Assembly (NCBI RefSeq): GCF_964204865.1
Contig: NC_135262.1
Coordinates: forward strand, 14,260,001-14,324,000
Length of the DNA stretch: 64,000 bases
Source of the DNA: Styela clava
Taxonomy: Eukaryota; Chordata; Ascidiacea; Stolidobranchia; Styelidae
Direction: 5' to 3'
Shown one piece after another: positions 6,413 to 64,000 of the stretch (positions are counted from its first letter, which is position 1; each line of letters starts with the position of its first letter). A program made the position numbers and the translations under genes. The notes under the pieces are model-generated. The model saw nothing but the letters and a program-made list of their open reading frames with translations. It did not search any database and had not been told where the DNA came from.

Positions 6413-6937
6413 TATGAGGTCTAAGGCTACGAAATGCGAAACCGGAAAGAAGTGAGGAGCTCAAAAGGAATGTGGAAAATCGAAAGCAAATGGACTAAAG
6501 GTCTCTAACTGATTCAAATAGCGAAACAAGCGACAAAAACGAAGGCGAGGATACTATCAACTCTTCAAGCAACCAACGAACGAGAAGGAATGCGTAAATA
6601 TGTCAACACGTTGTTGTAAGAAACGTCGGCATTGTGTCGTCATAATTTGGGGCTAGCCCCGATGATTTAGTAAAAGAAACAGAAAACAAACGAGACGCGG
6701 CGAGTGGAAGATAAAAGAGAGAATAAGATATACAATGAGCAACCGGGGCAAAATCGGCGTCGCCCCGTCGACGTTCGGCGAAGGCTTTGCGAGCGAAAAA
6801 TGAACCATGTCGGGAGAATATGGCTAGTGTAGACAGTCTGTGCAACCGATATTGGGGTATTTTTCGAATATTTTTTATTATACCGAAAAAACAACCGGGG
6901 CATTGCCCCGGTTGGCCCTATTGACGCGCCGCCACTG

Positions 6938-8287: not shown

Positions 8288-8296
8288 CCGATTCTA

Positions 8297-12135: not shown

Positions 12136-12635
12136 ACCATCGCGCAGCTTTCCATATTCACTGTTTAGGCTTTTCATTTTTGCGTTCAAATCAATACAGA
12201 CCGATTACGCCATGTTTGGAAATAGCAACAAATGTCATGCACTTTACTGAGTGTAAAAGTCTCTGTAAGACTTCATTTATATGTGCAGTGCCGCAGTAAA
12301 CACTATCATGTCCTGACAGACGGAAGTGCGCTTCTACAAAAAACCAAATGAGTGATCTGTTTTGATGACAAAAAAATTTCTTCCATGTCTTCCATGTACA
12401 AAAATGAACTATGTTTTTCACGTTTCCCATGAAAAATTCGTGCTCCGTGATCAGAAAAGGTAAACATAATTTGAGTCTTACACATGGCTTGACAGAATTA
12501 AGTTATTGTGTGTGACCATTACCAAAAGTAAATTATTTAATTAATTTAATTATTCTAATGACTTCCACATATTTTTAGATTTGCCTGGAGCAAAATTGTA
12601 AATGGAAGAAATTTTTTTGGCATCATAACATGGTT
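12136..12635 (+). promoter_or_regulatory. Upstream region of sushi gene A
   Basis: This 500-bp stretch separates the truncated BEL from the TATA box. The same stretch, almost unchanged, precedes gene C at 58630-59128. It contains no believable coding frame: the frames entering from the left are read-through from the BEL. It is the obvious place for upstream control elements, but I recognise no specific sites. Confidence 0.45.
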
Positions 12636-12641
12636 TATAAA
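12636..12641 (+). promoter_or_regulatory. TATA box of sushi gene A
   Basis: TATAAA lies 47 bp before the start codon. With the usual 25-30 bp spacing the transcript would start near 12665, leaving a 5' untranslated region of only about 20 nt. The same hexamer is kept at the same distance in gene C (59129-59134). This assignment is inferred from sequence and spacing only. Confidence 0.5.
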
Positions 12642-12682
12642 CGACGTCTCAGTTGACAGCGAGCACGATATAGGCTAATATC

Positions 12683-15600
12683 ATGGAGAAGCAGTTCTGG
12701 GAAGTTTCCTACGTTTTGATTGCTTTATTTTTGCATCTAACAGAAGGTTGGTATTTAGTTAGTTTCATTTTGGCAATGCACTTTTTTTAAATACTTAAAT
12801 GATCTCATCCATTTTTTTAAAAAAAAATACGTTCCAAAAAATTTAATACAGAAATTTATATTTGGATTGGAATATGCTACTGCACAATTTGTTTTTGTTA
12901 TTTCGATATTGATTTTAGAAGCAATGAATTGCCTGGTTCCAATGCTATTTGGTTATTTGTTGTATTAAGTAGTATTGATTATCAGCCATTGGCTCCTCTC
13001 TGTATATAGGTAATTACCATAGATGAACAAGCCCGCCGGCATTTTGCTCGTCCGCAGGCATTGACCATTGCGGTGTGCACCATTATAGTTCTCTTCGGTT
13101 TTTGTAGTTCTTGCGCATTTTAGTGGTCGTCACAAATAGGTTCAAAAACTATTTTTTTAAAGCAAGTTTTATTGGTTGCTAATATGCTATTTTTGGAGAA
13201 CTGGATAACGTGATATGACACCTTGCGCAAAAATCTTTTTTCTGATATAAAAGGTTGATTTATCACCAATCACACGTGAAAAACATCTTCCCCGTGAAAT
13301 GCTCGAAAATGATTCATGTAGCGCTAAAATGCCGAGTGGTGCTGGATTTTTATAGCTGTGTACGACATTGAGTGTCTTTGTGTGGTATCGCGTAATATAT
13401 TAGAGCCAGTGGCCAGCGGGTTAAATGGTAGAAGCAGCTCATGCTAAATAAATGTCTAAAATTCCGCTAGTTAATTTGTATTGCTCCAGTGGACAAGTTA
13501 CAACTTGTTTACATGTTATAAGATTATGTTGCTGGGGAATGGCAAAATGTATTTTCCCCTAGTTTAATGTTCATTACAGTATTTTTGAGAATGAGGTAAA
13601 ATAAAGCGAAAATTTCTAAATAAAGATATGAGTACTAATTTGACTGATTATTTAGCCTTGTCTGGTCCGGACATTGAGCGATGGGGTTGTCGGCTGCTAT
13701 TGCAAAAAAAATTTGATTGACCCGATTAAAACGGCAGTTTTTTAAAGTAGTTGTCAGTAGAGGTTGGACAACTTTCATTACTTTCTCAGTGCACTAGTGT
13801 GTGCCTTAGCACTAGTGGATTCGTATGCATATCATGCATTTTTTTAAGTCAAATTAAACGGCATAATTGTTCTTTTCTTGTCATTGTTGTAAACTGCTTG
13901 TCTGAGGAAGTCTAATTTTGGTCAGACAAAACGTTACAGAAATAAATTTGTTTTTAGTATGCAGCAATACTTTGAACTGTGTAGTTTTAAAATAGTAGTA
14001 TTATTTCGAAAAGTTAGATATACACAAAAACTTGCCTCAAGAAAATATTAGGAATAAATAAAATCGGGTATTTGGACGGTGAATATGTGATTGTATGGCG
14101 TCACTAAATGAATGGAAATTGACTTGAACTAAATTTGAACTTTATTCTTTATAACCTGATGGTGATATGGCCTCGAGTTAAACTCAAACATTTCCATCAT
14201 AAAACACGTATTAGCAGTTTCTAATTTTGAAACTTCCCGTCGGGCGCTTTCTTTCCTGAGGTCATTTTGCATAGGTCATTTTAAATTTTTTCATCCCTAA
14301 ATCTTCACTCATGGATTGTTTAAAACGTGTGCTAGAGTTCTATTTGGGTATATAACTTTAAAAAGTAATTCTCCAATAATAGTCTACTTATGCGACCTAA
14401 TGCCCCAAAATTTGAAAAAAAAACTCGATCTTGAGAGATGTTGTGTCTAAAGTAAACTACCATAGTAGAGGGTTAATAACTGATTACATCTGATTGATTT
14501 TTACGTTTTTTCATGTGATTTTCCAACAAAACATTACCACAACCATTAATATAGCTAAAATCGTTACCGAGAATTCACAACTGTATTTGTGAAATTTATA
14601 AAAATTTGTAAGAAAAATCTTTTTATAAAAACTGGCATATATATTCGCTTCTTTTTTCTCATTAATAGCTGGTAGTATATTAGGGTTTAAGCAAAATTAC
14701 TAAAAAATTGATGACATATTAAACAAAATCCGATCTTCAAATCATATTATATTATAATTTATTGTTCTATAATATTCGAAAAGTACATCTAAATATCTCA
14801 GCGCGATACCCCAAGGTGAGCGGTATTGAAAATAATGATTTTGTTATCCATATTTAGGTGGATAATTGTAACTGGTAGTCCTGAAATATACTCGACACTT
14901 GAGTTACGCATCTGTCATATAAATCAAAACACGTTCAATTTGAGTACTTCAAACTGACAGTTTGACATAAAAATGATTTTATCATTATCAGTTTAAAAAC
15001 TAACAAAGACATGATAAATCACACTAACAATTTTATAAAAGGATCTATAGGTCTACATTTTTATTCATTAATCTAACATTTAGCAACAGCTGAGATTTAG
15101 TGGTTTCCTATTCATCATTTAACCATAATCGTTTTCTTCGATCAAGGCCTGCACCCACTATTCTACACTTGATCTGTCTGCTAATTTTGCACTAGAAGCC
15201 ATATGCATTATACTTTTTAATATTTAAAATTGACCAGATGTCACAGAAAGTCGAAAAAAAATTATGAAATATTAATATTCAATTTACTTGCAAATTTATC
15301 AATTTATCCAGGAAATCATTGTCCACCAACTGGATATTCAAAACCGGGACTCATTGAAGATTGTACCAAATCTTACTTTCACGGGAGTATCTGCTCGTGA
15401 GTATATTTTAGTTCGATGAAGTATGGTTAGACGCGCATTGTTGTTGCAGGCATTGTTCACCAGCAATTTCTGATCTCATTTTACTAAACCATTTGGTCTG
15501 TCTCATGTCTACGTTTGAGAGCATTTATTGTTGATTTTTCTGCTTTCATTATTTTCACGTTAGATGAATTTTTATTTTTGAAAACTACTTTATCCCTTTT

Positions 15601-18600
15601 TTTAATTTTTTACTCCAATATAGCATTCCAGAATGAAACTGTAAATGTACCGTCCATAAAAACATTTAAATTTTTATTATACATATTGCAAAATTGATAT
15701 CAATTGACATGTCAGACAAACAGGCTCTGAAATCTGGTAAAAAGAGATAATAATCAGGGTATTGCAGATGCATACCCCCATCTTCATTATTAACGCAATA
15801 ACAGCAATAACCAACTAACCAACTCCACAAATACTCTTTGTCTTAAAATGATGTTCTGTGATATTTGAAGGTATTTTTCACCATGAACAACTATTTAGAT
15901 TGGTAAACTCAGTATTATATAGTGACTACAAAAATGTATGTGTTGTCGTTTTATAGATATACCTGTTCAGGCGGTTATGTGCTCGATGGACTAACAAGCA
16001 TCACTTGTATCGGCCCAGTCAACTCCGCATATTGGGACGGAAAGCCCCCTGGATGCAACCGTATGTAGTTTTACTACAATAAGTGTAAATTAATCACATT
16101 TATAAAAATGAAATGAACTTATATAATGAGTTGAACTGAAATATAACTACCACAAACATAGAACGATTTAAAGTTGAATGTTTCTCTACACTCTGTACCA
16201 AACATGATGTGGTAATACTGACTTTTGTGAAGATTTGTTAGTAAATCATGTATGTTGAGTTGACATTTCAGCTTTTAACTCCATGGTTTATATCTTTTAG
16301 CAATTGAGTGTACTCCATTTCAAAGTTTTGATGATAAATTTGGAACACGATCCTGAGGTGAATAATACCCATGCATACACGATGTGAAGTATACAATACT
16401 TTATTGAAAATGTTTATTTACTACTCTATTTTATTTCCTATATCATTTTGGTTGAGTTTTCAGAAAAACAACTAAAAAAACTCTTCATTTTCAGCCATAT
16501 GCGAGGATTTGAACTTTGCAGGCGAAATAACTTGTACGGCAGGCCCCCCAGTCCCTCCTCCTCATGCATGCACGTGAGTTATTTATTATAGTGTTTATTT
16601 GCACTTCCATTTGATAGTTTTAAACTTTGCTTTGAACCAACCGTTATTTAAAAGAATGAGAGATGCACATATTTTGATACATTGTCCAGACTTCACATTT
16701 TTTTCTGCACAAACTGTAATCTAGATCCGAATATCATTTCAGTATATTTATATATATATATGATATTAAATTATTCTTTAGTTTCAAATGCCCGAAAGGA
16801 GAAGAAATAGTGTCAGGAGAACGTATTATTATGTGCCAAGAAGATGGACAATGGTCTGCAGCTGTACCTACATGTAAAGGTATTCGATTTGCGTGTTGGC
16901 ATAGTGTTTTGCTTTTAATGATTCTACATTACCGCCCATAATACTGACGAGGACATTAGTTTTGTGTGTATAAGATGCACCGCTCTTATTTGTGTATCGT
17001 ATATGACAAATTCTATTAATGAAAAAATTTCCATTTCCAAATTTGCCACCCGATCTTGATTTAAGGGCCTGGTTGAATAGCCGCCCGTGTGAACAGAACA
17101 TAAAAATAAATAAGGGCCGGTGCTTGAATATCCGCCCGATGTTAAAGCTGATTTTTCAGTGGTAGAGAACAATAGGAAGTAAGAAGCGCTTTTGTCTCAA
17201 CGCTGTTGAATTTTAAGCGCTGGTAGATAACACTACGCCTTAGGCGTCTAATTACATAACAGATAGCATTGATTACGTAACACCGTGGTTTCGCTCCAAT
17301 GTATGATTTACACTAAATATAAATATAAAATTATTAGTTTTTTTATGAGATATGTTATTTGATTTCAATATTATCGTAATGTTAATTTATTGTGAATTAT
17401 CATTTACAGCCAGGATGTGCCAGCCACTGACGTTTCCTGATGGTAGCGTTGTTTGTGAACCAAACAACTATGATTACGAGACAACGTGCAGGTGACATAT
17501 TTAATATTACTGGCGTTGGCCAGTATTACAAAATAAAATTTCTTATAGCTTAGATTTTCTACCAGCTGAGCTGGGATTAAAATTGATCGGGGGGTTTTAT
17601 CTTTAATCATTTTTATCTCTACATTTTGCATAGGAATACGCGTTCTTGATTGCCACTTTTTTTTATAATAGCCTGATTAACTTCCCAAGTTTACTGACTA
17701 ATAATGATTAATACATCAATAGGAATCTTCCTAAGTAAACTTGAAATTGACATAATGACAATTGCAGAAGCGTGTTACAGATCAAAATAATGAATATTTT
17801 CTTAGTGAAGTTCTTTTATATATTCTAGCCCAGGGGTGGGCAACCTTTTTCGGCTCGCGTGCACAAACCGGCTAAATTTAACGACAAAATTCTTCCGCGT
17901 GCCGATCAAGATTAAAAACAATGCCTTGTTACTTTTAAAGCAAAAATACACAATAATAAACCTTCTAAACATGTAAGCTACAGACAGATTCACTATTCGG
18001 GAAAGTATCAGCCCGACAAATAGATTTGATTACTTTTCTTATTCTATATAAGCAAAGACTTCTTCTGCTGCATTACCGTTGATGGAGATTTCATTGGGAT
18101 TATATTTTGTAACTTTCATAGAAATATACGAACTACTGGTTATATTTCTTTTAAAATCAATTTATTTCAGCAACTTAGCAAGTAACTCTAACCAACATGG
18201 GTTGTACAACCGTAGTAGTTTATATTTACGGTACAACTTCATAAATCAATCAGAAATGAAGAAAAATAGTGGCACAGACGAACTATATATTACGTAACAA
18301 TGCACCCCCAATGAATGCTGTGTCTCGTCACAATTCGTCGAGAGCTAACTCAGTTGTCACGTCATAATATATTTCTTTGTAGCCACATGTCATGAAAAGA
18401 CAAAAAAGGGGTTTAAAATTTTAAATGAATACAGATTGTTAACAAACGATAATGAATAAACAAACACCGAGTTTCATCAGATAAATCAGAGCCACCAAAC
18501 CTTCTTATCTGAAAAAGAATGATCTCGTTTATGAGTTCTCGCTCTCGTTCCGAATAAATGGGCTCGCGTGCCAAGTTTGGCACGAGCGCCAGGGGTTGCC

Positions 18601-21600
18601 CACCCCTGTTCTAGCCTATCCCGATACGAGCCCACAACACGAACTTTCAAGTTACACGAAAAAAACTAACATGCATTGATAGTAACTACAGTATAATACT
18701 AACTAATCTTTTTTATTTTTTCACTAGTTTTGAGTGCCCTATGGGTTACGAACCTGACATACCTGGACTGACAATGACATGTGAACTGGACAAAACATGG
18801 TCCGGCAGTATGCCATCTTCGTGTGACCGTAAGTAGAAAATTTGAAACACATACTATAAATAGCAATTGTAGGTGCTAGGGTTGACAAGTCCGGAATTGA
18901 GTGACCTACATATTTTCGCGCACACCAAGACATCATTTGCCTTTGTTTTATGATTTTGCTATGAAGAATATTCTTTGTTTATGAGAGATTAGGCAAGAAA
19001 AGTATTCAACGAATTCGCCGTTGCTTGATGACTTGATCACGAGCAACTCTTAAAATGCGGCTAAAAGGGATGGGCAAGGAGTACCGTCGACAAAACTGCA
19101 ATATCCAACTATCCTGTGTTACACAACATCAATTATATTAGAATACATAGATACCGTTTCATTGGTTTTAGCTGTCGACTGTGGTCCATACGAAGAAGTA
19201 GAAGGTGGCAGCGCATCCTGCGATGATGGTACAACATACGAAAAAGTTTGCAGGTTGCTTTAAATTTATTATGTTACTCCTTCTTCGTATTTTATTTCTA
19301 TTTATCTTTTTGTTGATTACTGAAAGCTTACGGTAGGTCTTATAATTTTGTAAAGCAATGCACTTTAAATGCCTATAGTATTACTATTGATAAAATAATT
19401 TCGTTGGTAATGGGATTGGGGTGCTCCCGAAGTATTCGTACCAAGATGGCGCACGACCTTAACATAGTATGTGTACCGTGGTAGGGTTATGCAGATTGTG
19501 CGTCATCTTGGTACGAATACTTCCGGAGCGCCGGAATTGGTATATATATACTAAATTTCATAATTGTAACTATGTCGATATTTCTTTGAAAAAATTGACA
19601 AAAAATTGAGTATCAGACATCTCACTGCGTATTAGAACTAACATTTTGGATGAAATAATTAGATTGTATTTCTGCAAACATAAAATAATACTTTTTTGTA
19701 CTCAGTGTCGTGTGTGACGTGGGTTACAAACCAAAGCAATCTACTTCGGAATGTATGTTCGATGGAGAATGGAGCCAACCTCCCCTGGAATGCTCTAGTA
19801 AGCCTGGTTTTAATTTAAATAATCTTGCATTGCAATTTTCTAAAATCAAAAACTCTATATTAGGTATTAGTGAGTTGATATCCAGTTACCTAAGTGCATT
19901 GCTGTTATAACAAATTCTGTAGTGTAGCGAATGTGGATATAACTATGCACTATAATGTTATTTAACCCATTTGTATTAATAGTATTTAAGTTCAATATTC
20001 AGTGCTCAATTTCCTTGGTAAAGACTTATCGCGAGAAGCGAAAAGCCTGGGCAATACGTTTATTGTATCGAGCAATTTGCTACGTGTTTCCGGGTTTACG
20101 TCAGGGAGTTAAAATATAAGATTTTTCAAGTTTTGTGTGGATTAATGTTTTTGAGTTTCGACCGTATAACTTTATTAATGAGGTTCAATTGTATATTTCA
20201 ATATATCAGTTTGGATTCAATTCGATTGTGCAAATTTACAATTTTGCGGACATCTGGCATTATAATATACGGGGCTAGTTCACTAAACGCCGTGAAGTAG
20301 TTCTAGTTGGCGTGGCATAACCATTTTCGCATATGTCATTTCTAACCTCCACCTGATTACGTCATCCAAAAATTAAATCACCTCAACGTCACAGTGACGA
20401 AATAAGGTTCGTCAAAGTATACGAATCATCGTACAAAATGCGCAGACGAACAACTCGAAATCAAGCAAGCTATTTCTCTCGTTTTCCGCGTAACGATCCC
20501 GATATAAGATATCGCTAGCGTTAGCGAGTGCGTTATTGTCGGCGGAGATGCCATTTCGAGCAATGGCTTGCCTTTTTTGGCAAGCTCTATGGCGTGATTG
20601 TGACGTCGTAGTGACGTAATCTTTGGATGACGTAGCCAGGTGAGGGTTAGGAATAACATATGCAAAAATTCCCCCCCCCCCCATAGGCCTATAGTACCGA
20701 ATCACAACACCTACAAAAGATATTCCGTGTGAAACACCTCAATATATACTTGAAATTTCTTTACTTTATCAGAAATCACGTGCGGCGCTCTCGATTTTAG
20801 CAATCAACCTGGAACAATTTATTGTGACCCCCCTGATCTTGGTTATGATAGTACTTGTAGGTAAGTAACAGAAACATTATTATTTTAGTTAAACTACCTA
20901 ACAAAATAGGCTATAGTTTTGCTCTGTATCCAAAAATAATTATTTCTATTTTTAATATTTTCTTGATTTTAATTGTTCAAGTTTTACTTGTGACGATGGA
21001 TACGAATTGACGGGAAAGGCAGTTTTAAAATGCCAGGAAAGTGAAGAATGGGATGGTATTGTACCGACATGCAAGGGTATTTATATACATGTTCTTTATT
21101 TTTTAGTGTTAAATAAGTTGATAAGTTGATAAAAGCTTCGTAACCCCTTACTCCTTACTATGCTTATGTCTGAACAATTACGATATATCATCAATCCGAC
21201 AATCATAGAAGTGATTGAATTAAAATACATATGAGCTCTCCATAGAATCATAAAACCAATTTGTGTAATGAACAACAAAGAAAATTATGTATAGATAAAA
21301 GATAACAAAGCAAATTATTATAGTAATCGAGATTGGTTTTAGACGTTTTTTGTTCATCCCTGTCTTTTGATGATGGAACTGTTAAGTGCACAGAAAAAAA
21401 CGAATATAGCAGCACGTGCATGTAAGTATAAATTAATGCATTGTCTCGTCGTTTTTGTGGATTATTGCTTTTGACACCTTTCAAATTTTCAAGATATTAG
21501 GCAAATATCACGACTTTGTTAGGCTTGCATTTCATTGAGACAAGCTTGATTTCATTTCTTAATTCAAAATTGATTAACAATTATACAGAATTCGTCACAA

Positions 21601-24600
21601 TGTTTACAGATTTTTGCATGTATGGATGACTACATAAATACAGAACCAACTATTTGAGAAATTAGAAACCTGTGCGAATGCATATATATATATGTGGAAC
21701 AATTTTTAAAATACAATCATTTAATCATATTATTTTTTAAGAATGGTATTACAAAAAACAATTTTGTAATCTATTCTCTATTACACATCGATTGTAAAAC
21801 AAATTTCTTTTTCAAATTGATTAATATAATCTATTATTTAAATTGAATTTAGTTAACAGCTGGTGTTGATTCTGATAATATAGATGTTTTATGTTTCTAT
21901 CACGAAACCCAAAATTTGTATTTTTGTATTTCCAATTTATATGGCATTTTGGATAAAGGTGAGTGATCAAATACAAATAGTTTTCAAAGCCTACCAACTC
22001 GCGTTATGTAATTACTAATAAGCACTGTAAAAGCAATCCACGACTACAACCAATTGTGTATTGTTTTTGAAAAGGTTCACGTGCAGTTTTCCACTCACAC
22101 TCTATGGAGCTGAAGAGATAACCTGTTTAGCCAGCGGAGAATGGTCTAATCCAGTACCAGAATGCAAGAGTAAGTACTATGCTAATTTACTAATAACTTG
22201 GCCCGGGGTTCCAGCATACAGGGCAATTTTATTTCATTTGTGTATGAATTGAAGAAATATGCTTTTCGGAGTCAGTCATCTTAAGATCTGGAAGTAAGAC
22301 GTAGGTATCCTTACAACCTTCATTGGAATAATGTTTAGCAAGGTCCAAGATAATGTTTCTGTCATAGTGGGTTGACTCAATCTATTTGATGTTTAATCTA
22401 ATTATAATCTCATATGGTATTAATTATTGGCATTTTGCCCTTCCACACTGAAGTTGTTTGGGTTACATCTCTTGTCAGTGGTGGTCAGAGTCGTTATTTG
22501 TTTAGAGAAACAAAAACATTTCTGAAAAATTACCTTGCTTTGGTAAAAGAAATCATGTCGTAAACTTTTTGTCAAATAAATATTTTTCGATGCTTTTATC
22601 TCTGTGTCTGAATGCATTGAAGTTGTTGCTACCGGATATCCTATACCACTTCTCCCATTTCACTTCGAAATTCCATTTCACTTAGAAATTCCATTTTCAT
22701 TATGCTGTAAAAATAAACCACAGTAGTTAGCCTACTTAATGTGTGGTTTTGCAGTGTTTGATCCCAAGTGTGAAGATGCACTCGATCCTCTAGCTTGTGC
22801 TGATAATTGTAACAACAATCTTGACTGTGATGAATCCGAAGTTTGTTGTCAAAGTTCGTGTGGACTTACATGCAAAAAAATCAAGGTTTCTTCCAAAAAG
22901 CCCTTACTCAGTAAGTAAAACGTCAATTCGGTATTTATCTTTTTGTGTTCTTTACTATAAAATGCAATTGAAAATGGCTCGCAACGCAGAAACGTTAATC
23001 TGATTTGATTGTGCTCAATTTTTTTTTAAATAAATGCTTAAATATTTTTTTAAATTGATGTAGTTTTTGAGACTTAAATTAAATTTATGTATGTAACCAA
23101 TAATGCATCTGAGACTCTGAAGAGCAAACCAATGGTATATATATTTACTGAAAATCTTATGTCTTCCGACTCTCTTGCCACTTATTAATATCAATATCAT
23201 GATTAAATGATGTATAGCAGCTAAACTTTGATTTAAGAGCCAAATGTACCAAGCTTTCAGATAAAACAACGCAAGTTAAAATGTCTCTGAATTACCTCAT
23301 ATACGAGGTGATCTCATATGTATACATCACAAACTTCACAGGAAGTTTGGATTCAAATTCATCCGATTCATTTCTCCTGCGAACTGACCTTTGCGTTTAT
23401 TTTGTGTTAGCCCTAGTTTATCGCGCCAAGCGAAACTAGGTTTATGAAAATAAATAGATATAATAATATAAATTCTAACTGAATTATAACATATTTCTTT
23501 TTTATAAATTTCAGATTTAGATAAAAATGCATTGCTTGGTCTATTGCTGGCTTCTTCCATGAAGCGCCCCGGACCAGTATGCCCAAGATGTGATAGAAAT
23601 TTTAATGCATGTTATTATTCAACTTGTCCAAGATATCTCAATGCGTTTTGTGGAACAGGCTGCAATGGATGTACAGCACATTACTATAACCCCTATAATA
23701 AGAAAGAAAGTATTCATTGTAAGTGACTGGTTCTATGTTTTTCTAACTTATTTTATTTGTATAAAGAGTTATTTCTAATGGATTTATGTACGTTAGCTTT
23801 GCATGATTGCATTTGTGACGACATTCCCACAAACGTGACATCAATTATAGCTGAAATTTGGTCCTGTGTGTTAAAAAATAAAGATTATCTTTTTTTCCGT
23901 CAGTCCAGCCTATGAAGCCATGGGAAATGTTTTATGTCTGTAAAATATATTTGTGTTCAGTGCAATTCTGTAACTACTTTAGCTTATTTTATCATATTGT
24001 AACTGCTCAGGTGGTTGTCCACCTCACACTCCACCAAACCCAAATTGTGCTGGATATATGTGTAACGGAGTTGGATGTGCAAACTTCCCACAAGCTCAGT
24101 GTCGTGTGTACGGTTGCGGACCAACATGCTATTTACAGTTTTTCGATCGATTTGGACGAAGAGTACAGTGCAGAGAGGAAGGTATTTATTTTGTCCTCGT
24201 CTCAACTTAAAGTTATTGGAACCAGTATATACAAATATCCTCCATTATATATAACTTACCTGTTTTGACTCGACTTCAAATGACGAAGTATGCTTTTCCG
24301 CCCACGCAGTTGTTACAATTGTATTTTTTTGCATAAAATTACAGATGTATTCAGCGGTAATCAGAAACCTTTACATAAAATTTTTAATAATTAATATATT
24401 TTTACTCTTATAATATAACCAACTCAACGTCAACTTTAGGATAAAACTATTATTGTATTGTCTCCTAATTCGGCAAATGTTTAAGTTGACTTTGCGTACC
24501 CATGCAACATTATTAAATTAAACCACAATAGAGTGTTAAAAGATGAATGCATTTGGTAACGTTTCGTTCTTGAAATAATGCTCAAATGATTGAAAAGATT

Positions 24601-24870
24601 TCAATATTTTTGTGCTATTGTGCAATTTGTTCATTTCTATTTATAATATATTTTTTCAAATCTGTTTCATAACTGTATTATATTTTATATTTAGCAACTT
24701 GTCAGCCTGGAATAAACGCGGTTGGTCTTTGTAGCAGAGGATGCCTTGTTGCTTCTTGTCCAAAGTATCCCACAGCTCATTGTCGAGTCCGGTGCCCTGG
24801 ATGTCCTCCTGAATTCTACGACCAAAAGACCAATCGGCCCATTGTTGATTGCAATCAATATAATGGTTAA
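12683..24870 (+). CDS. Secreted sushi (x6)-WAP-Cys-rich (x3) protein, gene A, 17 exons
   Basis: Exons: 12683-12746, 15312-15396, 15957-16060, 16495-16573, 16782-16879, 17410-17491, 18728-18828, 19172-19253, 19706-19797, 20773-20860, 20982-21076, 21343-21421, 22075-22169, 22755-22910, 23515-23718, 24011-24181, 24695-24870. All introns are GT-AG, and the total of 1,851 nt closes exactly on TAA (616 residues). Residues 1-22 are a signal peptide (MEKQFWEVSYVLIALFLHL). Sushi modules lie at about 23-84, 85-143, 144-204, 205-262, 263-323 and 324-381. Each has the core Trp and ends in Pro-x-Cys or similar, and each has six cysteines, as in selectin-type sushi domains, rather than four. A WAP-like eight-cysteine module (LDCDESEVCCQSSCG) occupies 382-433. 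Three related Cys-rich modules occupy 434-501, 502-558 and 559-616. No membrane segment or anchor is seen, so the product should be secreted. Sushi and WAP modules suggest extracellular binding, protease inhibition or defence; the actual role is unknown. The exon model is by eye. Confidence 0.85.
12747..15311 (+). other. Intron 1 of gene A
   Basis: This 2,565-bp AT-rich intron separates the signal-peptide exon from the first sushi module. The donor reads GTTGGT (weak) and the acceptor CCAG. It has no convincing coding frame. The same intron, with small indels, is at 59240-61812 in gene C. Confidence 0.7.
15397..17409 (+). other. Introns 2-5 of gene A with no further features
   Basis: Introns 15397-15956, 16061-16494, 16574-16781 and 16880-17409 lie between sushi exons 2-6. 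They are AT-rich and contain only short chance frames. Intron 5 holds a GC-richer patch near 17040-17160 that reappears in gene C at 63590-63710. There about 60 bp (63535-63595) are present that are lacking here. Confidence 0.6.
17831..18608. mobile_element. hAT-type non-autonomous transposon in intron 6
   Basis: The ends are CAGGGGTGGGCAACC and, inverted, GGGTTGCCCACCCCTG, followed inward by CGGCTCGCGTGC and its near-complement. A perfect 8-bp target duplication TTCTAGCC lies at 17823-17830 and 18609-18616. The terminal sequence and 8-bp duplication are typical of hAT elements. At 778 bp with no transposase, it needs an enzyme supplied in trans. Confidence 0.9.
19417..19536. mobile_element. 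Short MITE-like inverted repeat in intron 8
   Basis: About 120 bp are bounded by arms of nearly 40 bp that read GAAGTATTCGTACCAAGATG on one side and its inverted form with few mismatches on the other. Most of the element is therefore terminal repeat and could fold into a hairpin. The homologous position in copy B is at 27678-27785, where the left arm has lost about 20 bp. The target duplication was not clear. Confidence 0.7.
20278..20690. mobile_element. MITE with long terminal repeats in intron 9, right end lost
   Basis: It begins GTTCACTAAACGCCGT and contains the first arm of the element seen whole in copy B (28687-29125). The inverted counterpart of CCACCTGATTACGTCATCC is visible near 20625. 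The outer part of the right arm is missing and is replaced by a run of 12 C at 20671-20682. The interior has CpG-rich sequence unlike the surrounding intron. Confidence 0.65.
21077..24694 (+). other. Introns 11-16 of gene A
   Basis: Between the exons listed for gene A these introns are AT-rich and contain short simple repeats such as (TA)n near 21685. The open frames over exons 13 and 14 that begin with ATG are the exons themselves read on into the introns. No other gene was recognised. Confidence 0.6.
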
Positions 24871-28114: not shown

Positions 28115-31100
28115 TGTCGTGTGTTACGTGGGTTACAAACCAAAGCAATCTAATTCGGAATGTATCTTCAATGGAGAATGGAGCCAACCTTCTCTGGAAT
28201 GCTCTAGTAAGCCTGGTTTTAATTTAAATAATCTTGCATTGCAATTTTCTAAAATCAAAAACTTTATATTAGGTATCAGTGGGTTGATATCCAGTTTTCT
28301 AAGTGCATTGTTGTTATAACAAATTCTGTAGTGTAGCGAATGTGGATATAACTATGGACTATAATGTTATTTAACCCATTTGTATCAATAGTATTTAAGT
28401 TCAATAATTAGTGCTCAATTTCCTTGGTAAAGACTTATCGCGAGAAGCGAAAAGCCTGGGCAATACGTTTATTGTATCGAGCAATTTGCTACGTGTTTCC
28501 GGGTTTACGTCCGGGAGTTAAAATATAAGATTTTTCAAGTTTTGTGTGGATTAATGTTTTTGAGTTTCGACCGTATAACTGTATTAATGAGGTTCGATTG
28601 TATATTTCAATATATCTGTGTGGATTCAATTTGATTGTGCAAATTTACAATTTTGCGGACATCTGGCATTATAATATACGGGGATAGTTCACTAAACGCC
28701 GTCAAGTAGTTCTAGTTGGCGTGGCATAACCATTTTCGCATATGTCATTTCTTAGCTCCACCTGATTACGTCATCCAAAAATCAAATCACCTCAACGTCA
28801 CAGTGACAAAATAAGGTTTGTCAAAGTATACGAATCATCGTACAAAGTGTGCAGACGAACACTCGAAATCAAGCAAGCTATTTCTCTCGTTGTCCCGCGT
28901 AACGATCCCGATATAAGAGAGATCGCTAGCGTTAGCGAACGAGTGCGTTATCGTCAGCGGAGATGCCATTTCGAGCAATTGTACCCTTTTTGGCAAGCTC
29001 TATGGCGTGATTGTGACGTCGTAGTGACGTAATATTTGGATGACGTAGCCAGGTGGGGGTTAGGAATAACATATGCAAAAATGTTTGTGCCACACAACTA
29101 GAAGTACTTACGGCATTTAGTGAACATGTGCCCACGGGAGTGTGAACACACAGAGTTAGGAGGCTACGTTAATCCCCTATAGTACTGAATCACAACACCA
29201 TTTTTTTTTATTTAAATCAATTTTTACAAAAGATATTCCGTGTGAAACATCTCAATATATACTTGAATATTCTTTACTTTATCAGAAATCAAGTGCGTCG
29301 CTCTCGATTTTAGCAATCAACCTGGAACAATTTATTGTGACCCCGCTGATCTTGGTTATGATAGTACTTGTAGGTAAGTAACAGAAACAGTATTATTCCA
29401 ATTAAATATTACATAACTACCTAACAAAATAGGCCATAGTTTTGCTTTGTATTCAAAAATAATTATTTCGATTTTTATTATTTTCTTGATTTTAATTGTT
29501 TAAGTTTTACTTGTGACGATGGATACGAATTGACGGGAAAGGCAGTTTTGAAATGCCAGGAAAGTGAAGAATGGGATGGTATTGTACCGACATGCAAGGG
29601 TATTTATATACATGTTCTTTATTTTTTAGTGTCAAATAAGTTTATAAAAGCTTCGTAACCCCTTACTCCTTACTATGCTTATGTCTGAACAATTACGATA
29701 TATCATCAATCAGGCAATCTTAGAAGTGATTAAATTAAAATACATATGAGCTCTCCATAAAATCATAAAACCGATTTGTGTAATGAACAACAAAGAAAAT
29801 TATGGATAGATAAAAGATAACAAAGCAAATTATCAAAGTAATCGAACTTGGTTTTAGACGTTTTTTGTTCATCCCTGTCTTTTGATGATGGAACTGTTAA
29901 GTGCACAGAAAAAACGAATATAGCAGCACGTGCATGTAAGTATAAACTAATGCATTGTCTCGTCGTTTTTGTGGATTATTGCTCTCGACACCTTTTAAAT
30001 TTTCAAAATATTAGGCAAATATCACGACTTTGTTAGGCTTGCATTTCATTGAGACAAGCTTGATTTCATTTCTTAATTAAAAATTGATTAACAATTATAC
30101 AGAATTCGTCACAATGTTTACAGATTTTTGCATGTATGGATGACTACATAAATACAGAACCAACTATTTGAGAAATTAGAAACTTGTGTTAATGCATATA
30201 TATATATATGTGGAACCATTTTTAAAATATTTTTTAAGAATGGTATTACACAAAACATGTTTGTAATCTCTTCTCTATTACACATCGATTGTAAAACAAA
30301 TTTCTTTTTCAAATTGATTAATATAATTTATTATTTAAATTGAATTTAGTTAACAGCTGGTGTTGATTCTGATAATATAGATGTTTTATGTTTCTATCAC
30401 AAAACCCAATATTTGTATTTCCAATTTACATGGCATTTTGGATAAAGGTATGTGATCAAATACAAAAAGTTTTCAAAGTCTACCAACTCACGTTATGTAA
30501 TTACTAATAAGCACTGTAAAAGCAATCCACGACTACAACCAATTGTGTATTGTTTTTGAAAAGGTTCACGTGCAGTTTTTCACTCACACTCTATGGAGCT
30601 GAAGAGATAACCTGTTTAGCCAGCGGAGAATGGTCTAATCCAGTACCAGAATGCAAGAGTAAGTATTATTCTAATTTACTAATAACTTGGCCCAGGGTTT
30701 CAGCATACAGGGCAATTTTATTTCATTTGTGTATGAATTAAAGAAATATGCTTTTCGGAGTCGGTCATCTTAAGATCAGAAAGTAAGGTATCCTTACAAC
30801 CTTCATTGGAATAATGTTTAGCAAGGTCCAAGATAATGTTTTTGTCATAGTGGGTTAACTCAAAGTATTTGATGTTTATTCTAATTATAATCTCATATGG
30901 TATTAATTATTGGCATTTTGCGCTTCCACACTGAAGTTGCTCGGGTTACATCTCTTGTCAGTGGTGGTCAGAGTCGTTTCAGAGTCGAAACGAAAGCATT
31001 TTTGAAAAATTACCTTGCTTTGTTAAAAGAAATCATGTCGTAACCTTTTTATCCAATAAATATGTTTCAATGCTTTTATCTCTGTGTCTGAATGCATTGA

Positions 31101-33431
31101 AGATGTTGCTACCGGATATCCTATACCACTCCTCCCATTTCACTTTGAAATTCCATTTCACTTAGAAATTCCATTCGTGATTTGATACTATACCCTTCAT
31201 GTACAGTTCTATTTTTTCATTATGCTGTAAAAATATACCACAGTAATTAGCCTACTTAATGTGTGGTTTTGCAGTGTTTGATCCCAAATGTGAAGATGCA
31301 CTCGATCCTCTAGCTTGTGCTGATAATTGTAACAACAATCTTGACTGTGATGAATCCGAAGTTTGTTGTCAAAGTTCGTGTGGACTTACATGCAAAAAAA
31401 TCAAGGTTTCTTCCAAAAAGCCCTTACTTAGTAAGTAAAACGTCAATTCGGTATTTATCTTTTTGTGTTCTTTACTATAAAATGCAATTGAAAATGGCTC
31501 GCAACACAGAAACGTTAATCTGATTTGATTGTGCTCAATTTTTTTTTTTAAATAAATGCCTAATTAATTTTTTGAATTGATGCAGTTTTTGAGACTTAAA
31601 TTAAATTTATGTATGTAACCAATATTGCATCTGAGACCCTAAAGAGCAAATATATTTCACCAATGGTATAGAAATTTACTGAAAATCCTATGTCTTCCAA
31701 CTCTCTTGCCACTTATTAATATTATTATTATGCTTATGATGAAGCATAGCAGCTAAACTTTGATTTAAGAGCCAAATGTAGCAAGCTTTCAGATAAAACA
31801 ACGCAAATTTAAAGGTCTCTGAAATACCTCATATACGAGGTGATCTCATATGTATACACCACAAACTTCACATAAAGTTTGGATTCAAATTCATCCGATT
31901 CATTTCTCCTGCGGACTAACCTTTGAGTTTACTTTGTGTTAGCCCTAGTTTATCGAGCCAAGCGAAACTAGGTTTATGAAAATAAATAGATATAATAATA
32001 TAAATTCTAACTGAATTATAACATATTTCTTTTTTACAAATTTTCAGATTTAGATAAAGAGGCATTGCTTGGTCTATTGCTGGCTACCTCCATGAAGTGC
32101 CCCGGACCAGTATGCCTAAGATGTGGTAAAAATTTCAATGCATGTTATTATTCAACTTGTCCAAGATATCTCAATGCGTTTTGTGGCTGCAATGAATGTA
32201 CAGCACATTACTATAACCCCTATAATAAGAAAGAAAGTATTCATTGTAAGTGACTGGTTTTATATTTTTCTAACTTATTTTATTTGTATAACGAGTTATT
32301 TCTAATGGATTTATGTACTTTAGCTTTGCATGATTGCATTTGTGACGATACTCCCACAAACGTGACATCAATTATAGCTGAAATTTGGTTTTGTGTGTTG
32401 TCATTTTCTTATACCATGGCTCAGAATAAATTCTTTAAAATAAATTATCTTGTTTATATCTTATCATCAAATATACAAGTTCCCGGTTCGCTCATTCCAA
32501 CCAATTCTACTACAGATAATTTATCATTATATAAAAAAAAAAATAATAAAATAGATTATCTTTTTCTCTGTCAGTCCAGTCTCTGAAGCCGTGGGAAATG
32601 TTTTATGTCTGTAAAATATATTTGTGTTCAGTGCAATTCGGTAACTACTTTAGCTTACTTTGTCATATTGTAACTGCTCAGGTGGTTGTCCACTTCACAC
32701 TCCACCAAACCCAAATTGTGCTGGATATATGTGTAACGGAGTTGGATGTGCAAACTTCCCACAAGCTCAGTGTCGTGTGTACGGTTGCGAACCAACATGC
32801 TATTTACAGTTTTTCGATCGATTTGGACGAAGAGTACAGTGCAGAGAAGAAGGTATTTATTTTGTCTTTGCCTCAACTTAAAGTTATTGAAACCAGTATA
32901 TACAAATGTTCTCCAATATATATACCTTACCTGTGTTGACTTGACTTCAAATGACGAAGTATGCTTTTCCGCCCACGCAGTTGTTACAATTGTAATTTTT
33001 TGCATAAAATTACAGGTGTATTCAGAGGTAATCAGTGACCTTTACATAAATTTTATTATTTCATATATTTTTTACTTCTATAATATAACCAATCCAACGT
33101 CAATATAGGATAAAACTATTATTGTATTTTCTCCTAATTCGGCAAATGTTGACTTTGCGTTCCCATGCAACATTATAAAATTAAACCACAATGAGGTGTT
33201 AAAAGATGAGTGCATTTGGTATCGTTTCGTTCTTGAATTAATGCTCAAATGATTGAAAAGATTTCAATATTTTTGTGCTATTGTGCAATTTGTTCATTTC
33301 TATTTATAATATATTTTTTCAAATCTGGTTTATAACTGTATTATATTTTGTGTTTAGCAACTTGTAAGCCTGGAATAACCGTGGTTGGTCTTTGTAGCAG
33401 AGGATGCTTTGTTGCTTCTTATCCAAAGTAG
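28115..33431 (+). pseudogene. Sushi-WAP-Cys-rich pseudogene, copy B (exons 9-17 only)
   Basis: Exon counterparts: 28115-28206, 29286-29373, 29505-29599, 29858-29935, 30564-30658, 31275-31430, 32048-32245, 32682-32852, 33358-33431. Splice sites are kept. It lacks the signal peptide and the first three and a half sushi modules. Exon 12 has six A where gene A has seven (after GTGCACAG), so it is 78 instead of 79 nt and the frame shifts; a stop follows in exon 13 near 30608. The last exon has lost 5 bp and meets TAG at 33429-33431, before the final module is complete. Exon 15 has a harmless 6-bp deletion. Replacement changes are frequent even in exon 9. Splicing of gene A exon 8 into exon 9 here would be in phase but would end at the same frameshift. 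A consensus error in the A run cannot be excluded, but two separate lesions make a pseudogene likely. Confidence 0.8.
28687..29125. mobile_element. MITE with terminal repeats of about 100 bp
   Basis: The left arm starts GTTCACTAAACGCCGT and the right arm ends with the inverted ACGGCATTTAGTGAAC. The match runs inward through TTCTAGTT, GCATATGT and ACGTCATCC. The full element is 439 bp and no transposase is present. Its homologue in intron 9 of gene A has lost its right end. Confidence 0.75.
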
Positions 33432-33855
33432 AGCTCATTGTCGAGTCCGGTGCCCTGGATGTCCTCCTGAATTCTACGACCAAAAGACCAATCGTCCCAT
33501 TGTTGATTGCAATCAATACAATGGTTATTGGGTTTTTTCAATCAGCTCTGTTCTGCATCTGCTTTTGGTGACTTGGACTCAACAGCAGCTCACGTGAACC
33601 AGTTTTTCTATGGAAACAAATTTGCTACTGAAACAAAATTTACTATTCAATATTTCAACTTTGTAACATTTGCAACTTATTCTTTACGGATGATATATTA
33701 AATAAATTGAATGATTTTATTGCAGAAAGTTTACAATACATGAACATTTGGCAATTTATATGGGTAATATATTGAACTCCAGGCGTGCTAGAACTAAGCA
33801 TATTTCCAGCAGAGACTTTAAAGAATTTTACTGTACAGTACCATTGTATTTCTTG

Positions 33856-59134: not shown

Positions 59135-59175
59135 CGACGTCTCAGTTGACAGCGAGCACGATATAGGCTAATATC

Positions 59176-62100
59176 ATGGAGAAGAAGTTCTGGGAAGTTT
59201 CCTACGTTTTGATTGCTCTATTTTTGCATCTAACAGAAGGTTGGTATTTAGTTAGTTCCATTTTGGCAATTCACTTTTATTAAATACTTAAATGATCTCA
59301 TCCATTTTTTAAAAAAAAAATACGTTCTAAAAAATTTAATACAGAAATTTATATTTGGATTGGAATATGCTACTGCACAATTTGTTTTTGTTATTTCGAT
59401 ATTGATTTTAGAAGCAATGAATTGCCTGGTTCCAATGCTATTTGGTTATTTCTTGTATTAAGTAGTATTGATTATCAGCCATTGGCTCCTCTCTGTATAT
59501 AGGTAATTACCATAGATGAACAAGCCCGCCGGCATTTTGCTCGTCCGCAGGCATTGACCATTACGGTGTGCACCATTATAGTTCTCTTCGGTTTTTGTAG
59601 TTCTTGCGCATTTTAGTGGTCGTCACAAATAGGTTCAAAAACTATTTTTTTAAAGCAAGTTTTATTGGTTGCTAATATGCTATTTTCGGAGAACTGGATA
59701 ACGTGATATGACACCTTGCGCAAAAAATCTTTTTCCTGATATAAAAGGTTGATTTATCACCAATCACACGTGAAAAACATCTTCCCCGTGAAATGCTCGA
59801 AAATGATTCATATAGCGCTAAAATGCCGAGTGGTGCTGGATTTTTATAGCTGTGTACGAGTGTTTTTGTGTGGTATCGCGTAATATATTAGAGCCAGTGG
59901 CCAGCGGGTTAAATGGTAGAAGCAGCTCATGCTAAATAAATGTCTAAAATTCCGCTAGTTAATTTGTATTGCTCCAGTGGACAAGTTACAACTTGTTTAC
60001 ATGTTATAAGATTATGTTGCTGTGGAATGGCAAAATGTATATTCCCCTAGTTTAATGTTCATTACAGTATTTTTGAGAATGAGGTAAAATAAAGCGAAAA
60101 TTTCTAAATAAAGATATGAGTACTAATTTGACTGATTATTTAGCCTTGTTTGGTCCGGACATTGAGCGATGGGGTTGTCGGCTGCTATTGCAAAAAAAAA
60201 TTTGATTGACCCGATTAAAACTGCAGTTTTTTAAAGTAGTTGTCAGTAGAGGTTGGACAACTTTCATTACTTTCTCAGTGCCTTAGCACTAGTGGATTCG
60301 TATGCATATCATGCATTTTTTTAAGTCAAATTAAACCGCATAATTGTTCTTTTCTAGTCATTGTTGTAAACTGCTTGTCTGAGGAAGTCTAATTTTGGTC
60401 AGACAAAACGTTACAGAAATAAATTCGTTTTTAGTATGCAGCAATACTTTGAACTGTGTAGTTTTAAAATAGTAGTATTATTTCGAAAAGTTAGATATAC
60501 ACAAAAACTTGCCTCAAGAAAATATTAGGAATAAATAAAATCGGGTATTTGGACGGTGAATATGTGATTGTATGGCGTCACTAAATGAATGGAAATTGAC
60601 TTGAACTAAATTTGAACTTTATTCTTTATAACCTGATGGTGATATGGCCTCGAGTTAAAAATATGGCCTCAAACATTTCCATCATAAAACACGTATTACA
60701 GTTTCTAATTTTGAAACTTCCCGTCGGGCCGCTTTCTTTCCTGAGGTCATTTTGCATAGGTCATTTTAAATTTTTTCGTCCCTAAACCTTCGCTCATGGA
60801 TTGTTTGAAACGTGTGCTAGAGTTCCATTTGGTTATATACCTTCAAAAAGTAATTCTCCAATAATAGTCTACTTATGCGACCTAATGCCCCAAAACTTGC
60901 AAGAAAAACAACCTCGATCTTGAGAGATGTTGTGTCTATAGTAAACTACTATAGTAGAGAGGTAATAACTGATCACATCTGATTAATCTTTACGTTTTTT
61001 CATATGATTTTCCAACAAAACATTACCACAACCATTAATATAGCTAAAATCGTTACCGAGAAATCACAACTGTATTTGTGGAATTTATAAAAATTTGTGA
61101 GAAAAATCTTTTTATAAAAACTGGCATATATATTCGCTTCTTTTTTTCTCATTAATAGCTGGTAGTATATTAGGGTTTGAGCATAATTACTAAAAATTTG
61201 ATGACATACTAAACAAAATCCGATCTTCAAATCCTATTATATTATAATTTATTTTTCTCTAATATTCGAAAAGTACATCTAAATATCTCAGCGCGATACC
61301 CCAAGGTGAGCGGTATTTAAAATAATGATTTTGTTATCCATATTTAGGTGGATAATTGTAACTGGTAGTCCTGAAATATACTCGACACTTGAGTTACACA
61401 TCTGTCATATAAATCAAAACACGTTCAATTTGAGTACTTCAAACTGACAGTTTGACATAAAAATGATTTTATCATTATCAGTTTAAAAACTAACAAAGAC
61501 ATGATAAATCACACTAACAATTTTATAAAAGGATCCATAGGTCTACATTTTTGTTCATTAATCTAACATTTAGTAACAGCTGAGATTTAGTGGTTTCCTA
61601 TTTATCATTTAACCATAATGTATTCGATTCGTTTTCTTTGATCAAGGCCTGCACCCACTATTCTACACTTGATCTGTCTGCTACTTTTGCACTAGGAAGC
61701 CATATGTATTATACTTTTTAATATTGAAAATTGACCAGATGTCACAGAAAGTCGAAAAAAAATTATAAAATATTAATATTCAATTTACTTGCAAATTTAT
61801 CAATTTATCCAGGAAATCATTGTCCACCAACTAGATATTCAAAACCGGGACTCATTGAAGATTGTACCAAATCTTACTTTCACGGGAGTGTCTGCTCGTG
61901 AGTATATTTTAGTTCGATGAAGTATGGTTAGACGCGCATTGTTGTTGCAGGCATTGTTCACCAGCAATTTCTGATCTCATTTTACTAAACCATTTTGGTC
62001 TGTCTCATGTCTACTTTTGAGAGCATTTATTGTTGATTTTTCTGCTTTCATTATTTTCACGTTAGATGAATTTTTATTTTTGAAAACTACTTTATCCCTT

Positions 62101-64000
62101 TTTTAATTTTTTACTCCAATATAGCATTCCAGAATGAAACTGTAAATGTACCGTCCATAAAAACATTTAAATTTTTATTATACATATTGCAAAATTCATA
62201 TCAATTGACATGTCAGACAAACAGGCTCTGAAATCTGGTAAAAAGAGATAATAATCAGGGTATTGCAGATGCATACCCCCATCTTCATTATTAACGCAAT
62301 AACAGCAATAACCAACTAACCAACTCCACAAATACTCTTTGTCTTAAAATGATGTTCTGTGATATTTGAAGGTATTTTTCACCATGAACAACTATTTAGA
62401 TTGGTAAACTCAGTATTATACAGTGACTACAAAAATGTATGTGTTGTCGTTTTATAGATATACCTGTTCAGGCGGTTATTTGCTCGATGGACTAACAAGC
62501 ATCACTTGTATTGGCCCAGTCGACTCCGCATATTGGGACGGAAAGCCCCCTGGATGCAACCGTATGTAGTTTTACTACAATAAGTGTAAATTAATCACAT
62601 TTATAAAAATGAAATGAACTTATATAATAAGTTGAACTGAAATATAACTACCACAAACATAGAACGATTTAAATTTGAATGTTTCTTTACACTCTGTACC
62701 AAACATGATGTGGTAATACTGACTTTTGTGAAGATTTGTTAGTAAATCATGTATGTTGAGTTGACATTTCAGCTTTTAACTCCATGGTTTATATCTTTTA
62801 ACAATTGAGTGTACTCCATTTCAAAGTTTTGATGATAAATTTGGAACACGATCCTGAGGTGAATAATACCCATGCATACACGATGTGAAGTATACAATAC
62901 TTTATTGAAAATGTTTATTTACTACTCTATTTTATTTCCTATATCATTTTGGTTGAGTTTTCAGAAAAACAACTAAAAAAACTCTTCATTTTCAGCCATA
63001 TGCGAGGATTTGACCTTTGCAGGCGAAATAACTTGTACGGCAGGCCCCCCAGTCCCTCCTCCTCATGCATGCACGTGAGTTATTTATTATAGTGTTTATT
63101 TGCACTTCCATTTGATAGTTTTAAACTTTGCTTTGAACCAACCGTTATTTAAAAGAATGAGAGATGCACATATTTTGATACATTGTCCAGACTTCACATT
63201 TTTTTCTGCACAAACTGTAATCTAGATCCGAATATCATTTCAGTATATTTATATATATATATGATAATAAATTATTCTTTAGTTTCAAATGCCCGAAAGG
63301 AGAAGAAATAGTGTCAGGAGAACGTATTATTATGTGCCAAGAAGATGGACAATGGTCTGCAGCTGTACCTACATGTAAAGGTATTCGATTTGCGTGTTGG
63401 CATAGTGTTTTGCTTTTAATGATGCTACATTACCGCCCATAATACTGACGAGGACATTAGTTTTGTGTGTATAAGATGCACCGCTCTTATTTGTGTATCG
63501 TATATGACAAATTCTATTAATGAAAAAATTTCCATTGCACAAATAAAACATATTGCGCCAGTTAACATTAAGTACCGTATATGCTCGTTTTGCCACCCGA
63601 TCTTGATTTAAGGGCCTGGTTGAATAGCCGCCCGTGTGAACAGAACATAAAAATAAATAAGGGCCGGTGCTTGAATATCCGCCCGATGTTAAAGCTGATT
63701 TTTCAGTGGTAGAGAACAATAGGAAGTAAGAAGCGCTTTTGTCTCAACGCTGTTGAATTTTAAGCGCTGGTAGATAACACTACGCCTTAGGCGTCTAATT
63801 ACATAACAGATAGCATTGATTACGTAACACCGTGGTTTCGCTCCAATGTATGATTTACACTAAATATAAATATAAAATTATTAGTTTTTTTATGAGATAT
63901 GTTATTTGATTTCAATATTATCGTAATGTTAATTTATTGTGAATTATCATTTACAGCCAGGATGTGCCAGCCACTGACGTTTCCTGATGGTAGCGTTGTT
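59176..64000 (+). CDS. Sushi-WAP-Cys-rich family protein, gene C, 5' part (cut by window edge)
   Basis: Exons: 59176-59239, 61813-61897, 62458-62561, 62996-63074, 63283-63380, and 63957 onward. All have the same lengths and splice phases as gene A, with no frameshift or stop. They encode the signal peptide (MEKKFWEVSYVLIALFLHL), two complete six-cysteine sushi modules and the start of a third. Against gene A, exons 1-5 carry six amino-acid replacements (Gln to Lys, Gly to Arg, Ile to Val, Val to Leu, Asn to Asp, Asn to Thr) and two silent changes. No cysteine is affected. Whether the rest is intact lies outside the window. It probably encodes a secreted paralogue of the gene A protein. Confidence 0.8.
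59240..61812 (+). other. Intron 1 of gene C
   Basis: This is the counterpart of 12747-15311, with small indels. The minus-strand frame at 61000-61230 has no recognisable motif and is broken in gene A, so it is not called a gene. Confidence 0.65.

What the first reader, a model, noticed from the sequence alone, without database searches (positions are those of the whole stretch)
12683..24870. A complete 616-residue secreted mosaic protein: six sushi, one WAP and three Cys-rich modules
Seventeen exons joined at GT-AG sites give 1,851 nt that close exactly on a stop codon. The combination of six-cysteine sushi modules, a WAP module and a block of unfamiliar Cys-rich modules in one secreted protein is one I do not recognise as a described family. 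Sushi modules bind partners and WAP modules often inhibit proteases or microbes, so a humoral defence or matrix role is a reasonable guess.
Basis: partly seen in the sequence, partly recalled or inferred. Interest (0 to 1): 0.75.

Follow-up and report, generated by a model that had tools for sequence, protein, structure and literature searches.

The report
Tunicate sushi–WAP secreted protein family
A sea-squirt genome carries a real, repeatedly duplicated family of proteins, probably secreted, made of six sushi domains, one WAP domain and three copies of an eight-cysteine module that has no entry in the domain libraries searched; it looks like a new mix of mostly known building blocks, and its function is untested.

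Summary
Seventeen exons (12683-24870) join at GT-AG sites into 1,851 nt, 616 aa, ending on a stop. Two further full-length copies lie in the same tandem array without an exon indel. Ten of 13 more diverged stretches put sushi exons directly before WAP and eight-cysteine (CR8) exons. All 68 cysteines belong to modules: 6x6 sushi, 8 WAP, 3x8 CR8. Selection keeps most of the protein: dN/dS 0.13-0.22 between full copies over exons 9-17, against 1.72 between two broken half-copies of the array; 0.18-0.30 against six diverged paralogues, two more saturated. Only the outermost sushi reaches 1 or more (small counts). Cellulose synthase and GH6 matches 2 kb apart mark a tunicate. Sushi and WAP pass Pfam; CR8 has no convincing match in Pfam, NCBIfam or solved structures. 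Nine paper searches found no named family; no other animal genome could be searched. Most likely: a soluble multi-copy protein with a changing sushi tip on a conserved WAP-CR8 stem, in blood, tunic or egg-coat recognition. Function is inferred. New variant of a known kind.

The parts
12683..12746 (+). exon 1: start codon and signal peptide (aa 1-22)
   Evidence: present in c3; hydrophobic stretch
15312..15396 (+). exon 2: sushi 1, first half
15957..16060 (+). exon 3: sushi 1, second half
16495..16573 (+). exon 4: sushi 2, first half
16782..16879 (+). exon 5: sushi 2, second half
17410..17491 (+). exon 6: sushi 3, first half
18728..18828 (+). exon 7: sushi 3, second half
19172..19253 (+). exon 8: sushi 4, first half
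19706..19797 (+). exon 9: sushi 4, second half
20773..20860 (+). exon 10: sushi 5, first half
20982..21076 (+). exon 11: sushi 5, second half
21343..21421 (+). exon 12: sushi 6, first half
22075..22169 (+). exon 13: sushi 6, second half
22755..22910 (+). exon 14: WAP domain (8 Cys)
   Evidence: Pfam PF00095 23.7 bits for the exon alone
23515..23718 (+). exon 15: hydrophobic/basic linker and CR8 module 1
   Evidence: hydrophobic stretch in 12 of 12 sequences examined (two further rows left out, see report)
24011..24181 (+). exon 16: CR8 module 2
   Evidence: AF2 model mean pLDDT 83.6
24695..24870 (+). exon 17: CR8 module 3 and stop codon
   Evidence: AF2 model mean pLDDT 75.9; AATAAA 151 nt after the stop
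28115..33528 (+). broken 3' half-copy (exons 9-17 only): 1-nt deletion in exon 12, 6-nt deletion in exon 15, 5-nt deletion in exon 17
59176..64000 (+). 5' part of the next full copy c3 (exons 1-5 and part of exon 6; continues beyond the window to C17:14331466)

Best explanation
SHOWN: a real 17-exon gene, one of three full-length tandem copies and of a wider family in a tunicate genome, encoding a protein without a membrane helix beyond the signal peptide: six six-cysteine sushi modules, a short-loop WAP, a hydrophobic/basic linker and three copies of an uncurated eight-cysteine module (CR8), most of it kept by purifying selection. INFERRED: the protein is secreted into blood, tunic or egg-coat space; the sushi arm binds a partner with its outer end, which changes fastest between copies, while the WAP and CR8 block is a disulfide-locked stem that assembles or anchors the protein. 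Copies multiply by tandem segmental duplication and are partly homogenised, so the binding tip drifts or is selected to change while the stem stays fixed.
For: Exon chain and frame; full copies without exon indels, and c1-c2 exons 2.76% against introns 7.87% divergent, 0 against 714 gapped columns; the intron figure includes a poorly alignable stretch in intron 6. dN/dS over exons 9-17: c1-c2 0.22, c1-c3 0.19, c2-c3 0.13, against 1.72 for the two half-copies; Fisher p 0.042 (c1-c2 only) or 0.023 with c2-c3 added, pairs not independent. dN/dS 0.18-0.30 to six of eight paralogues, two saturated. c1-c2 dN is 0.056 in residues 1-204 but 0.0047 in 205-381 and 0.0073 in 382-616. Sushi 1 alone: about 9.5 non-synonymous and 1.5 synonymous changes c1-c2, dN/dS near 1.9 (1.0 and 1.2 for the other pairs, worked out), and its exons differ more than the introns around them (11 of 189 against 47 of 1,799, p 0.021). 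Sushi matches complement receptors 1 and 2, factor H, E-selectin. Tunicate: PF03552 at C9:16177457 and PF01341 at C9:16179895, same strand; CesA is in all sequenced tunicate genomes and absent from other metazoan ones (PMC6523144, abstract seen).
Against: No expression, protein or binding data. The sushi 1 signal was picked after looking, is uncorrected, and the same exon-against-intron test is p 0.090 for c1-c3 and 0.25 for c2-c3. dS is also higher in residues 1-204 between c1 and c2 (0.10 against 0.02-0.03) and dN/dS there is 0.56, so recombination or homogenisation explains part of the pattern. The half-copy contrast rests on 13 and 15 substitutions. Diverged paralogues say little about the outer sushi modules: nearly all fetched stretches begin inside the gene, and only C17:13.60 Mb reaches well upstream of exon 5; exons 2-4 were not recovered there, while two extra sushi second-half exons were. 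Secretion is read from hydropathy only.
Confidence: 0.45

Rival explanations
1. A structural or adhesive matrix protein (tunic, larval papilla, egg coat): all modules serve assembly, and sushi divergence is drift.
For: 68 Cys, all in modules, and no recognisable enzyme domain; a hydrophobic stretch opening exon 15 in 12 of 12 sequences examined, possibly for assembly; CCP modules occur in Oikopleura house proteins (PMC3390340, passages), and WAP and sushi modules, in different proteins, in limpet adhesive (PMC7333891, passages).
Against: No expression site known. Three near-identical full copies plus a dispersed family would be unusual for a single structural part, though not excluded.
Confidence: 0.3
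2. A WAP-driven secreted protease inhibitor or antimicrobial, with sushi modules for targeting.
For: WAP scaffold with all 8 Cys invariant in 13 of 13 sequences; Pfam WAP match in 9 of 13.
Against: Only three residues stand between Cys 2 and Cys 3; nearest solved relatives are anosmin-1 (E 0.0079) and nawaprin (0.048), both weak. That the inhibitory loop of elafin and SLPI lies there and is longer is recalled, not tested.
Confidence: 0.15
3. The neighbouring full copies c2 and c3 are two alleles placed in tandem by the assembler, so copy number is overstated.
For: c2-c3 introns differ by only 1.26%, a level that alleles of marine invertebrates can reach (recalled); 412 nt identical at 17042/63589.
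Against: c1 differs from both by about 8% in introns, and a half-copy pseudogene sits after c1 and c2 but none was found after c3; dispersed paralogues on other chromosomes remain regardless.
Confidence: 0.25
4. Not a functional gene: a chance exon chain or a pseudogene.
For: Two half-copies nearby are broken.
Against: Conserved exons, frame, splice sites, cysteines and low dN/dS in copies and paralogues.
Confidence: 0.02

Closest known systems
Complement-control / selectin-type sushi proteins (CR1, CR2, factor H, E-selectin)
   Same: Runs of sushi modules; strongest PDB sequence matches are CR1 and CR2. The E-selectin match spans the two extra cysteines of sushi 6 (residues 12-58 of the query); that selectin sushi modules have six cysteines is recalled.
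   Different: No membrane helix, no C-type lectin or EGF match; carries WAP and CR8 modules.
Tunicate CCP proteins: Ciona vCRL1, Botryllus fester and fester co-receptors
   Same: Tunicate and sushi-bearing; the Ciona products come from hemocytes and vary between individuals (PMC5465252 passages); fester and its co-receptors are multigene (PMC12065747 passages).
   Different: Fester and co-receptors have Ig domains and transmembrane segments; here no Ig match, no membrane helix, and a WAP-CR8 end.
Anosmin-1 (WAP module)
   Same: Best solved match of the WAP profile; same C-x3-C-x5-C-x5-CC-x3-C-x3-C spacing in the alignment shown.
   Different: E only 0.0079; anosmin-1 pairs its WAP with fibronectin type III modules (recalled), not sushi.
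Bivalve 'type-B P-selectins' (CCP-only proteins)
   Same: Expanded invertebrate sushi genes (PMC9484242 passages).
   Different: Only CCP domains there; no WAP or CR8 in the passages seen.

Membership tests
Sushi/CCP domain (PF00084) | matches the curated profile above cut-off | tested here: met
   114.9 bits against 20.7, six stretches
WAP domain (PF00095) | matches the curated profile above cut-off | tested here: met
   exon 14 alone 23.7 against 20.8 bits; within the whole protein 15.4 bits, below
WAP domain (PF00095) | eight conserved cysteines with a CC pair | tested here: met
   invariant in 13 of 13 sequences
Elafin/SLPI-type WAP inhibitor | long inhibitory loop after Cys 2 and protease inhibition | tested here: inconclusive
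   three residues between Cys 2 and 3 here; the comparison length is recalled and no assay is possible
Fester / fester co-receptor | Ig domain and transmembrane segment | tested here: not met
   only Sushi and WAP at E up to 10; best 19-residue mean hydropathy 1.0
Ciona vCRL1 | variable receptor with CCP domains | tested here: inconclusive
   CCP present, no membrane helix by hydropathy; vCRL1 sequence not available for comparison
Selectin | C-type lectin and EGF domains | tested here: not met
   neither found at E up to 10
A curated family or known fold for the CR8 module | match in Pfam, NCBIfam or a solved structure | tested here: inconclusive

The most novel reading that the evidence does not exclude
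A soluble tunicate recognition family: a constant disulfide-locked stem (WAP plus CR8 modules, CR8 being an undescribed domain) carries a sushi arm whose outermost module is under selection to change and spreads by tandem duplication and recombination, a secreted counterpart to the sushi-bearing tunicate receptors.
Probability: 0.15. Interest if true: 0.65.

Novelty: new variant of a known kind. Interest (0 to 1): 0.36.

Why it matters
It adds an eight-cysteine module unlisted in the libraries searched and a sushi-WAP-CR8 architecture to the extracellular toolkit of the animals closest to vertebrates. The tandem array, with intact copies beside broken half-copies as a neutral control, is a ready system for asking whether secreted sushi proteins diversify in tunicates. 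Much of it is nonetheless ordinary module shuffling.

Full report
What is there. Exon 1 carries the signal peptide; each of six sushi modules is split over two exons (2-13); the WAP domain fills exon 14; exons 15, 16 and 17 each hold one eight-cysteine module, here called CR8. Cysteines count 6 in every sushi, 8 in WAP and 8 in each CR8: 68 in all, none left over. No N-glycosylation sequon occurs. A poly(A) signal AATAAA follows the stop by 151 nt, and by 164 and 162 nt in c1 and c3.

It is a family. The window is C17:14260001-14324000 of a 376.6-Mb assembly. Copies c1 (to 14236248), c2 (the finding) and c3 (14319176-14331466) are full-length, 1,851 nt each, without one exon indel; the first 5 bases of c1 were not fetched. 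After c1 and after c2 lies a 3' half-copy with exons 9-17; none was found between c3 and 14.347 Mb. Both half-copies share a 1-nt deletion in exon 12 and a 5-nt deletion in exon 17. Window repeats show the ~46.5-kb duplication directly. Genome-wide, 84 places match the CR8 block (E up to 1) and 34 the WAP exon (E up to 0.1), both lower bounds; of the 34, 13 are at least 60% identical over at least 47 of the 51 residues.

Diverged paralogues. I modelled 13 stretches. Ten have sushi exons directly upstream of WAP; two start too close to WAP to tell (C5, C2) and one (C17:17.11 Mb) shows CR8, CR8, WAP, CR8, CR8 and no recovered sushi. Six have all three CR8 exons after WAP. C16:19.27 Mb lacks a recovered exon 15. 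A second group (C9, C10, C5, C2 and one at C17:14.347 Mb) has two CR8 exons and no recovered exon 17; the C10, C5 and C2 stretches are short, 2-4 kb. Of 98 internal exon matches, 67 have both splice sites at exactly the predicted bases and 97 have an in-frame pair nearby; chance for the exact case is 53 of 19,400. Cysteine counts agree in 104 of 104 exon peptides.

Selection. Between full copies, exons 9-17 give dN/dS 0.13-0.22; between the half-copies 1.72 (2 synonymous, 13 non-synonymous); Fisher p is 0.042 using c1-c2 alone and 0.023 adding c2-c3, which shares a sequence with it. Numbers are small. Over the whole frame c1-c2 is 0.43, c1-c3 0.34 and c2-c3 0.47, so constraint is weaker in the 5' part. 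Against six paralogues 44-66% identical over the exons compared, c2 has dN/dS 0.18-0.30, the lowest at dS 3.1; two more pairs are saturated. Between c1 and c2, exons 1-7 differ by 3.5-8.2% and exons 8-17 by 0-3.2%. Intron divergence runs from 1.1% to about 42% by segment and falls from 9.3% to 1.1% across exon 8, so a recombination or conversion boundary probably lies there; introns beside exons 2 and 3 differ by only 2-4%. In that quiet stretch the sushi 1 exons differ at 11 of 189 bases against 47 of 1,799 in the introns (p 0.021), and sushi 1 dN/dS, worked out, is about 1.9, 1.0 and 1.2 in the three pairs. The same test gives p 0.090 (c1-c3) and 0.25 (c2-c3). It was chosen after looking and is a lead, not proof of positive selection.

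The modules. Sushi passes Pfam at 2.1e-33 and its best solved matches are complement receptors 1 and 2, with factor H and E-selectin further down. WAP is below Pfam's cut-off in the whole protein (15.4 against 20.8 bits) but above it alone (23.7), and 9 of 13 family WAP exons match at E up to 1. Its profile is nearest anosmin-1 and nawaprin, weakly. In this protein CR8 has the pattern C-x(2-9)-C-x(3-6)-C-x4-C-x7-C-x(3-4)-C-x(2-3)-C-x3-[FY]-[FY]; the first seven cysteines are invariant in 25 of 25 aligned. Pfam and NCBIfam give only one stray match each. AF2 gives, for exon 16, a short helix and two longer strands at pLDDT 84, and, for exon 17, a helix and two short strands at pLDDT 76, pTM 0.59 for both, without a convincing solved counterpart. 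I recall similar repeats in other invertebrate proteins; no call tests that. At the start of exon 15, twelve of twelve sequences examined (the window and 11 of 13 rows) have an 8-residue stretch of mean hydropathy 2.46 or more; 11 of 12 have at least one basic residue before the first cysteine. Left out were a near-identical copy (C17:4.58 Mb) and one of the two rows from C17:17.11 Mb, which begins at its first cysteine and has no such stretch. It is too short for a membrane helix.

Organism. Cellulose synthase (PF03552, C9:16177457-16177855) and GH6 (PF01341, C9:16179895-16180164) lie on one strand 2 kb apart, both over cut-off. CesA is reported in all sequenced tunicates and absent from other metazoan genomes (PMC6523144, abstract). 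So this is a tunicate; the species is not known to me.

How it probably works. A secreted, disulfide-dense rod: sushi modules as binding arm, WAP-CR8 as fixed stem. Exons 16-17 are 73-82% identical to those here in the nearest paralogues, 63% at C16, and exon 16 is 39-40% in two members of the second group; exon 7 is also well kept (60-84%), so the gradient along the arm is not smooth. Whether outer sushi modules differ among diverged paralogues is hardly tested: only C17:13.60 Mb reaches well upstream of exon 5, and there exons 2-4 were not recovered but two extra sushi second-half exons were. Blood, tunic and egg coat all fit. Everything in this paragraph beyond conservation is inference.

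Novelty. Sushi and WAP are old modules; the combination, the CR8 module and the array are not described in anything I found, in nine searches of an open-access library only. I file it as a new variant of a known kind: a mosaic extracellular protein family.

Noticed in passing
window 1-17453 against 48915-64000: Tandem segmental duplication of about 46.5 kb, pieces 93-100% identical and mostly 97-98%, that carries a BEL/Pao-type element (Peptidase_A17 match at 10159-10626) and the 5' part of the gene.
   Followed up: partly
window 28115-33528 and C17:14239515-14244991: Two broken 3' half-copies sharing the same small deletions in exons 12 and 17: an internal neutral control for the gene.
   Followed up: yes
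window 17831-18608 (intron 6): Insert bounded by inverted ends starting CAGGGGTGGGCAACC and flanked by an 8-base direct repeat TTCTAGCC, read directly, as in hAT-type elements (hAT signature recalled). c1 aligns poorly here.
   Followed up: no
window 3468-6412 (-), 41280-43154 (+), 51240-52782 (-): Broken transposase-like frames in direct and inverted copies; two of those scanned match DUF4371; hAT kinship is recalled.
   Followed up: partly
window 44782-47197: Retroelement fragment with zinc knuckles, aspartyl protease and reverse transcriptase matches.
   Followed up: partly
window 1-1405 and 2355-3759: 1,405 nt repeated at 100% identity in tandem: very recent duplication or assembly artefact.
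   Followed up: no
L043 (C17:17112501-17117500): A relative with four recovered CR8 modules and a WAP but no sushi recovered: CR8 and WAP seem to travel together without sushi.
   Followed up: partly
window 15312-16060 (sushi 1): Sushi 1 exons differ more between c1 and c2 than the introns around them, mostly by amino-acid-changing substitutions.
   Followed up: partly
L045, L046 (C9:16177457-16180164): Cellulose synthase and GH6 matches side by side, marking the genome as a tunicate's.
   Followed up: yes
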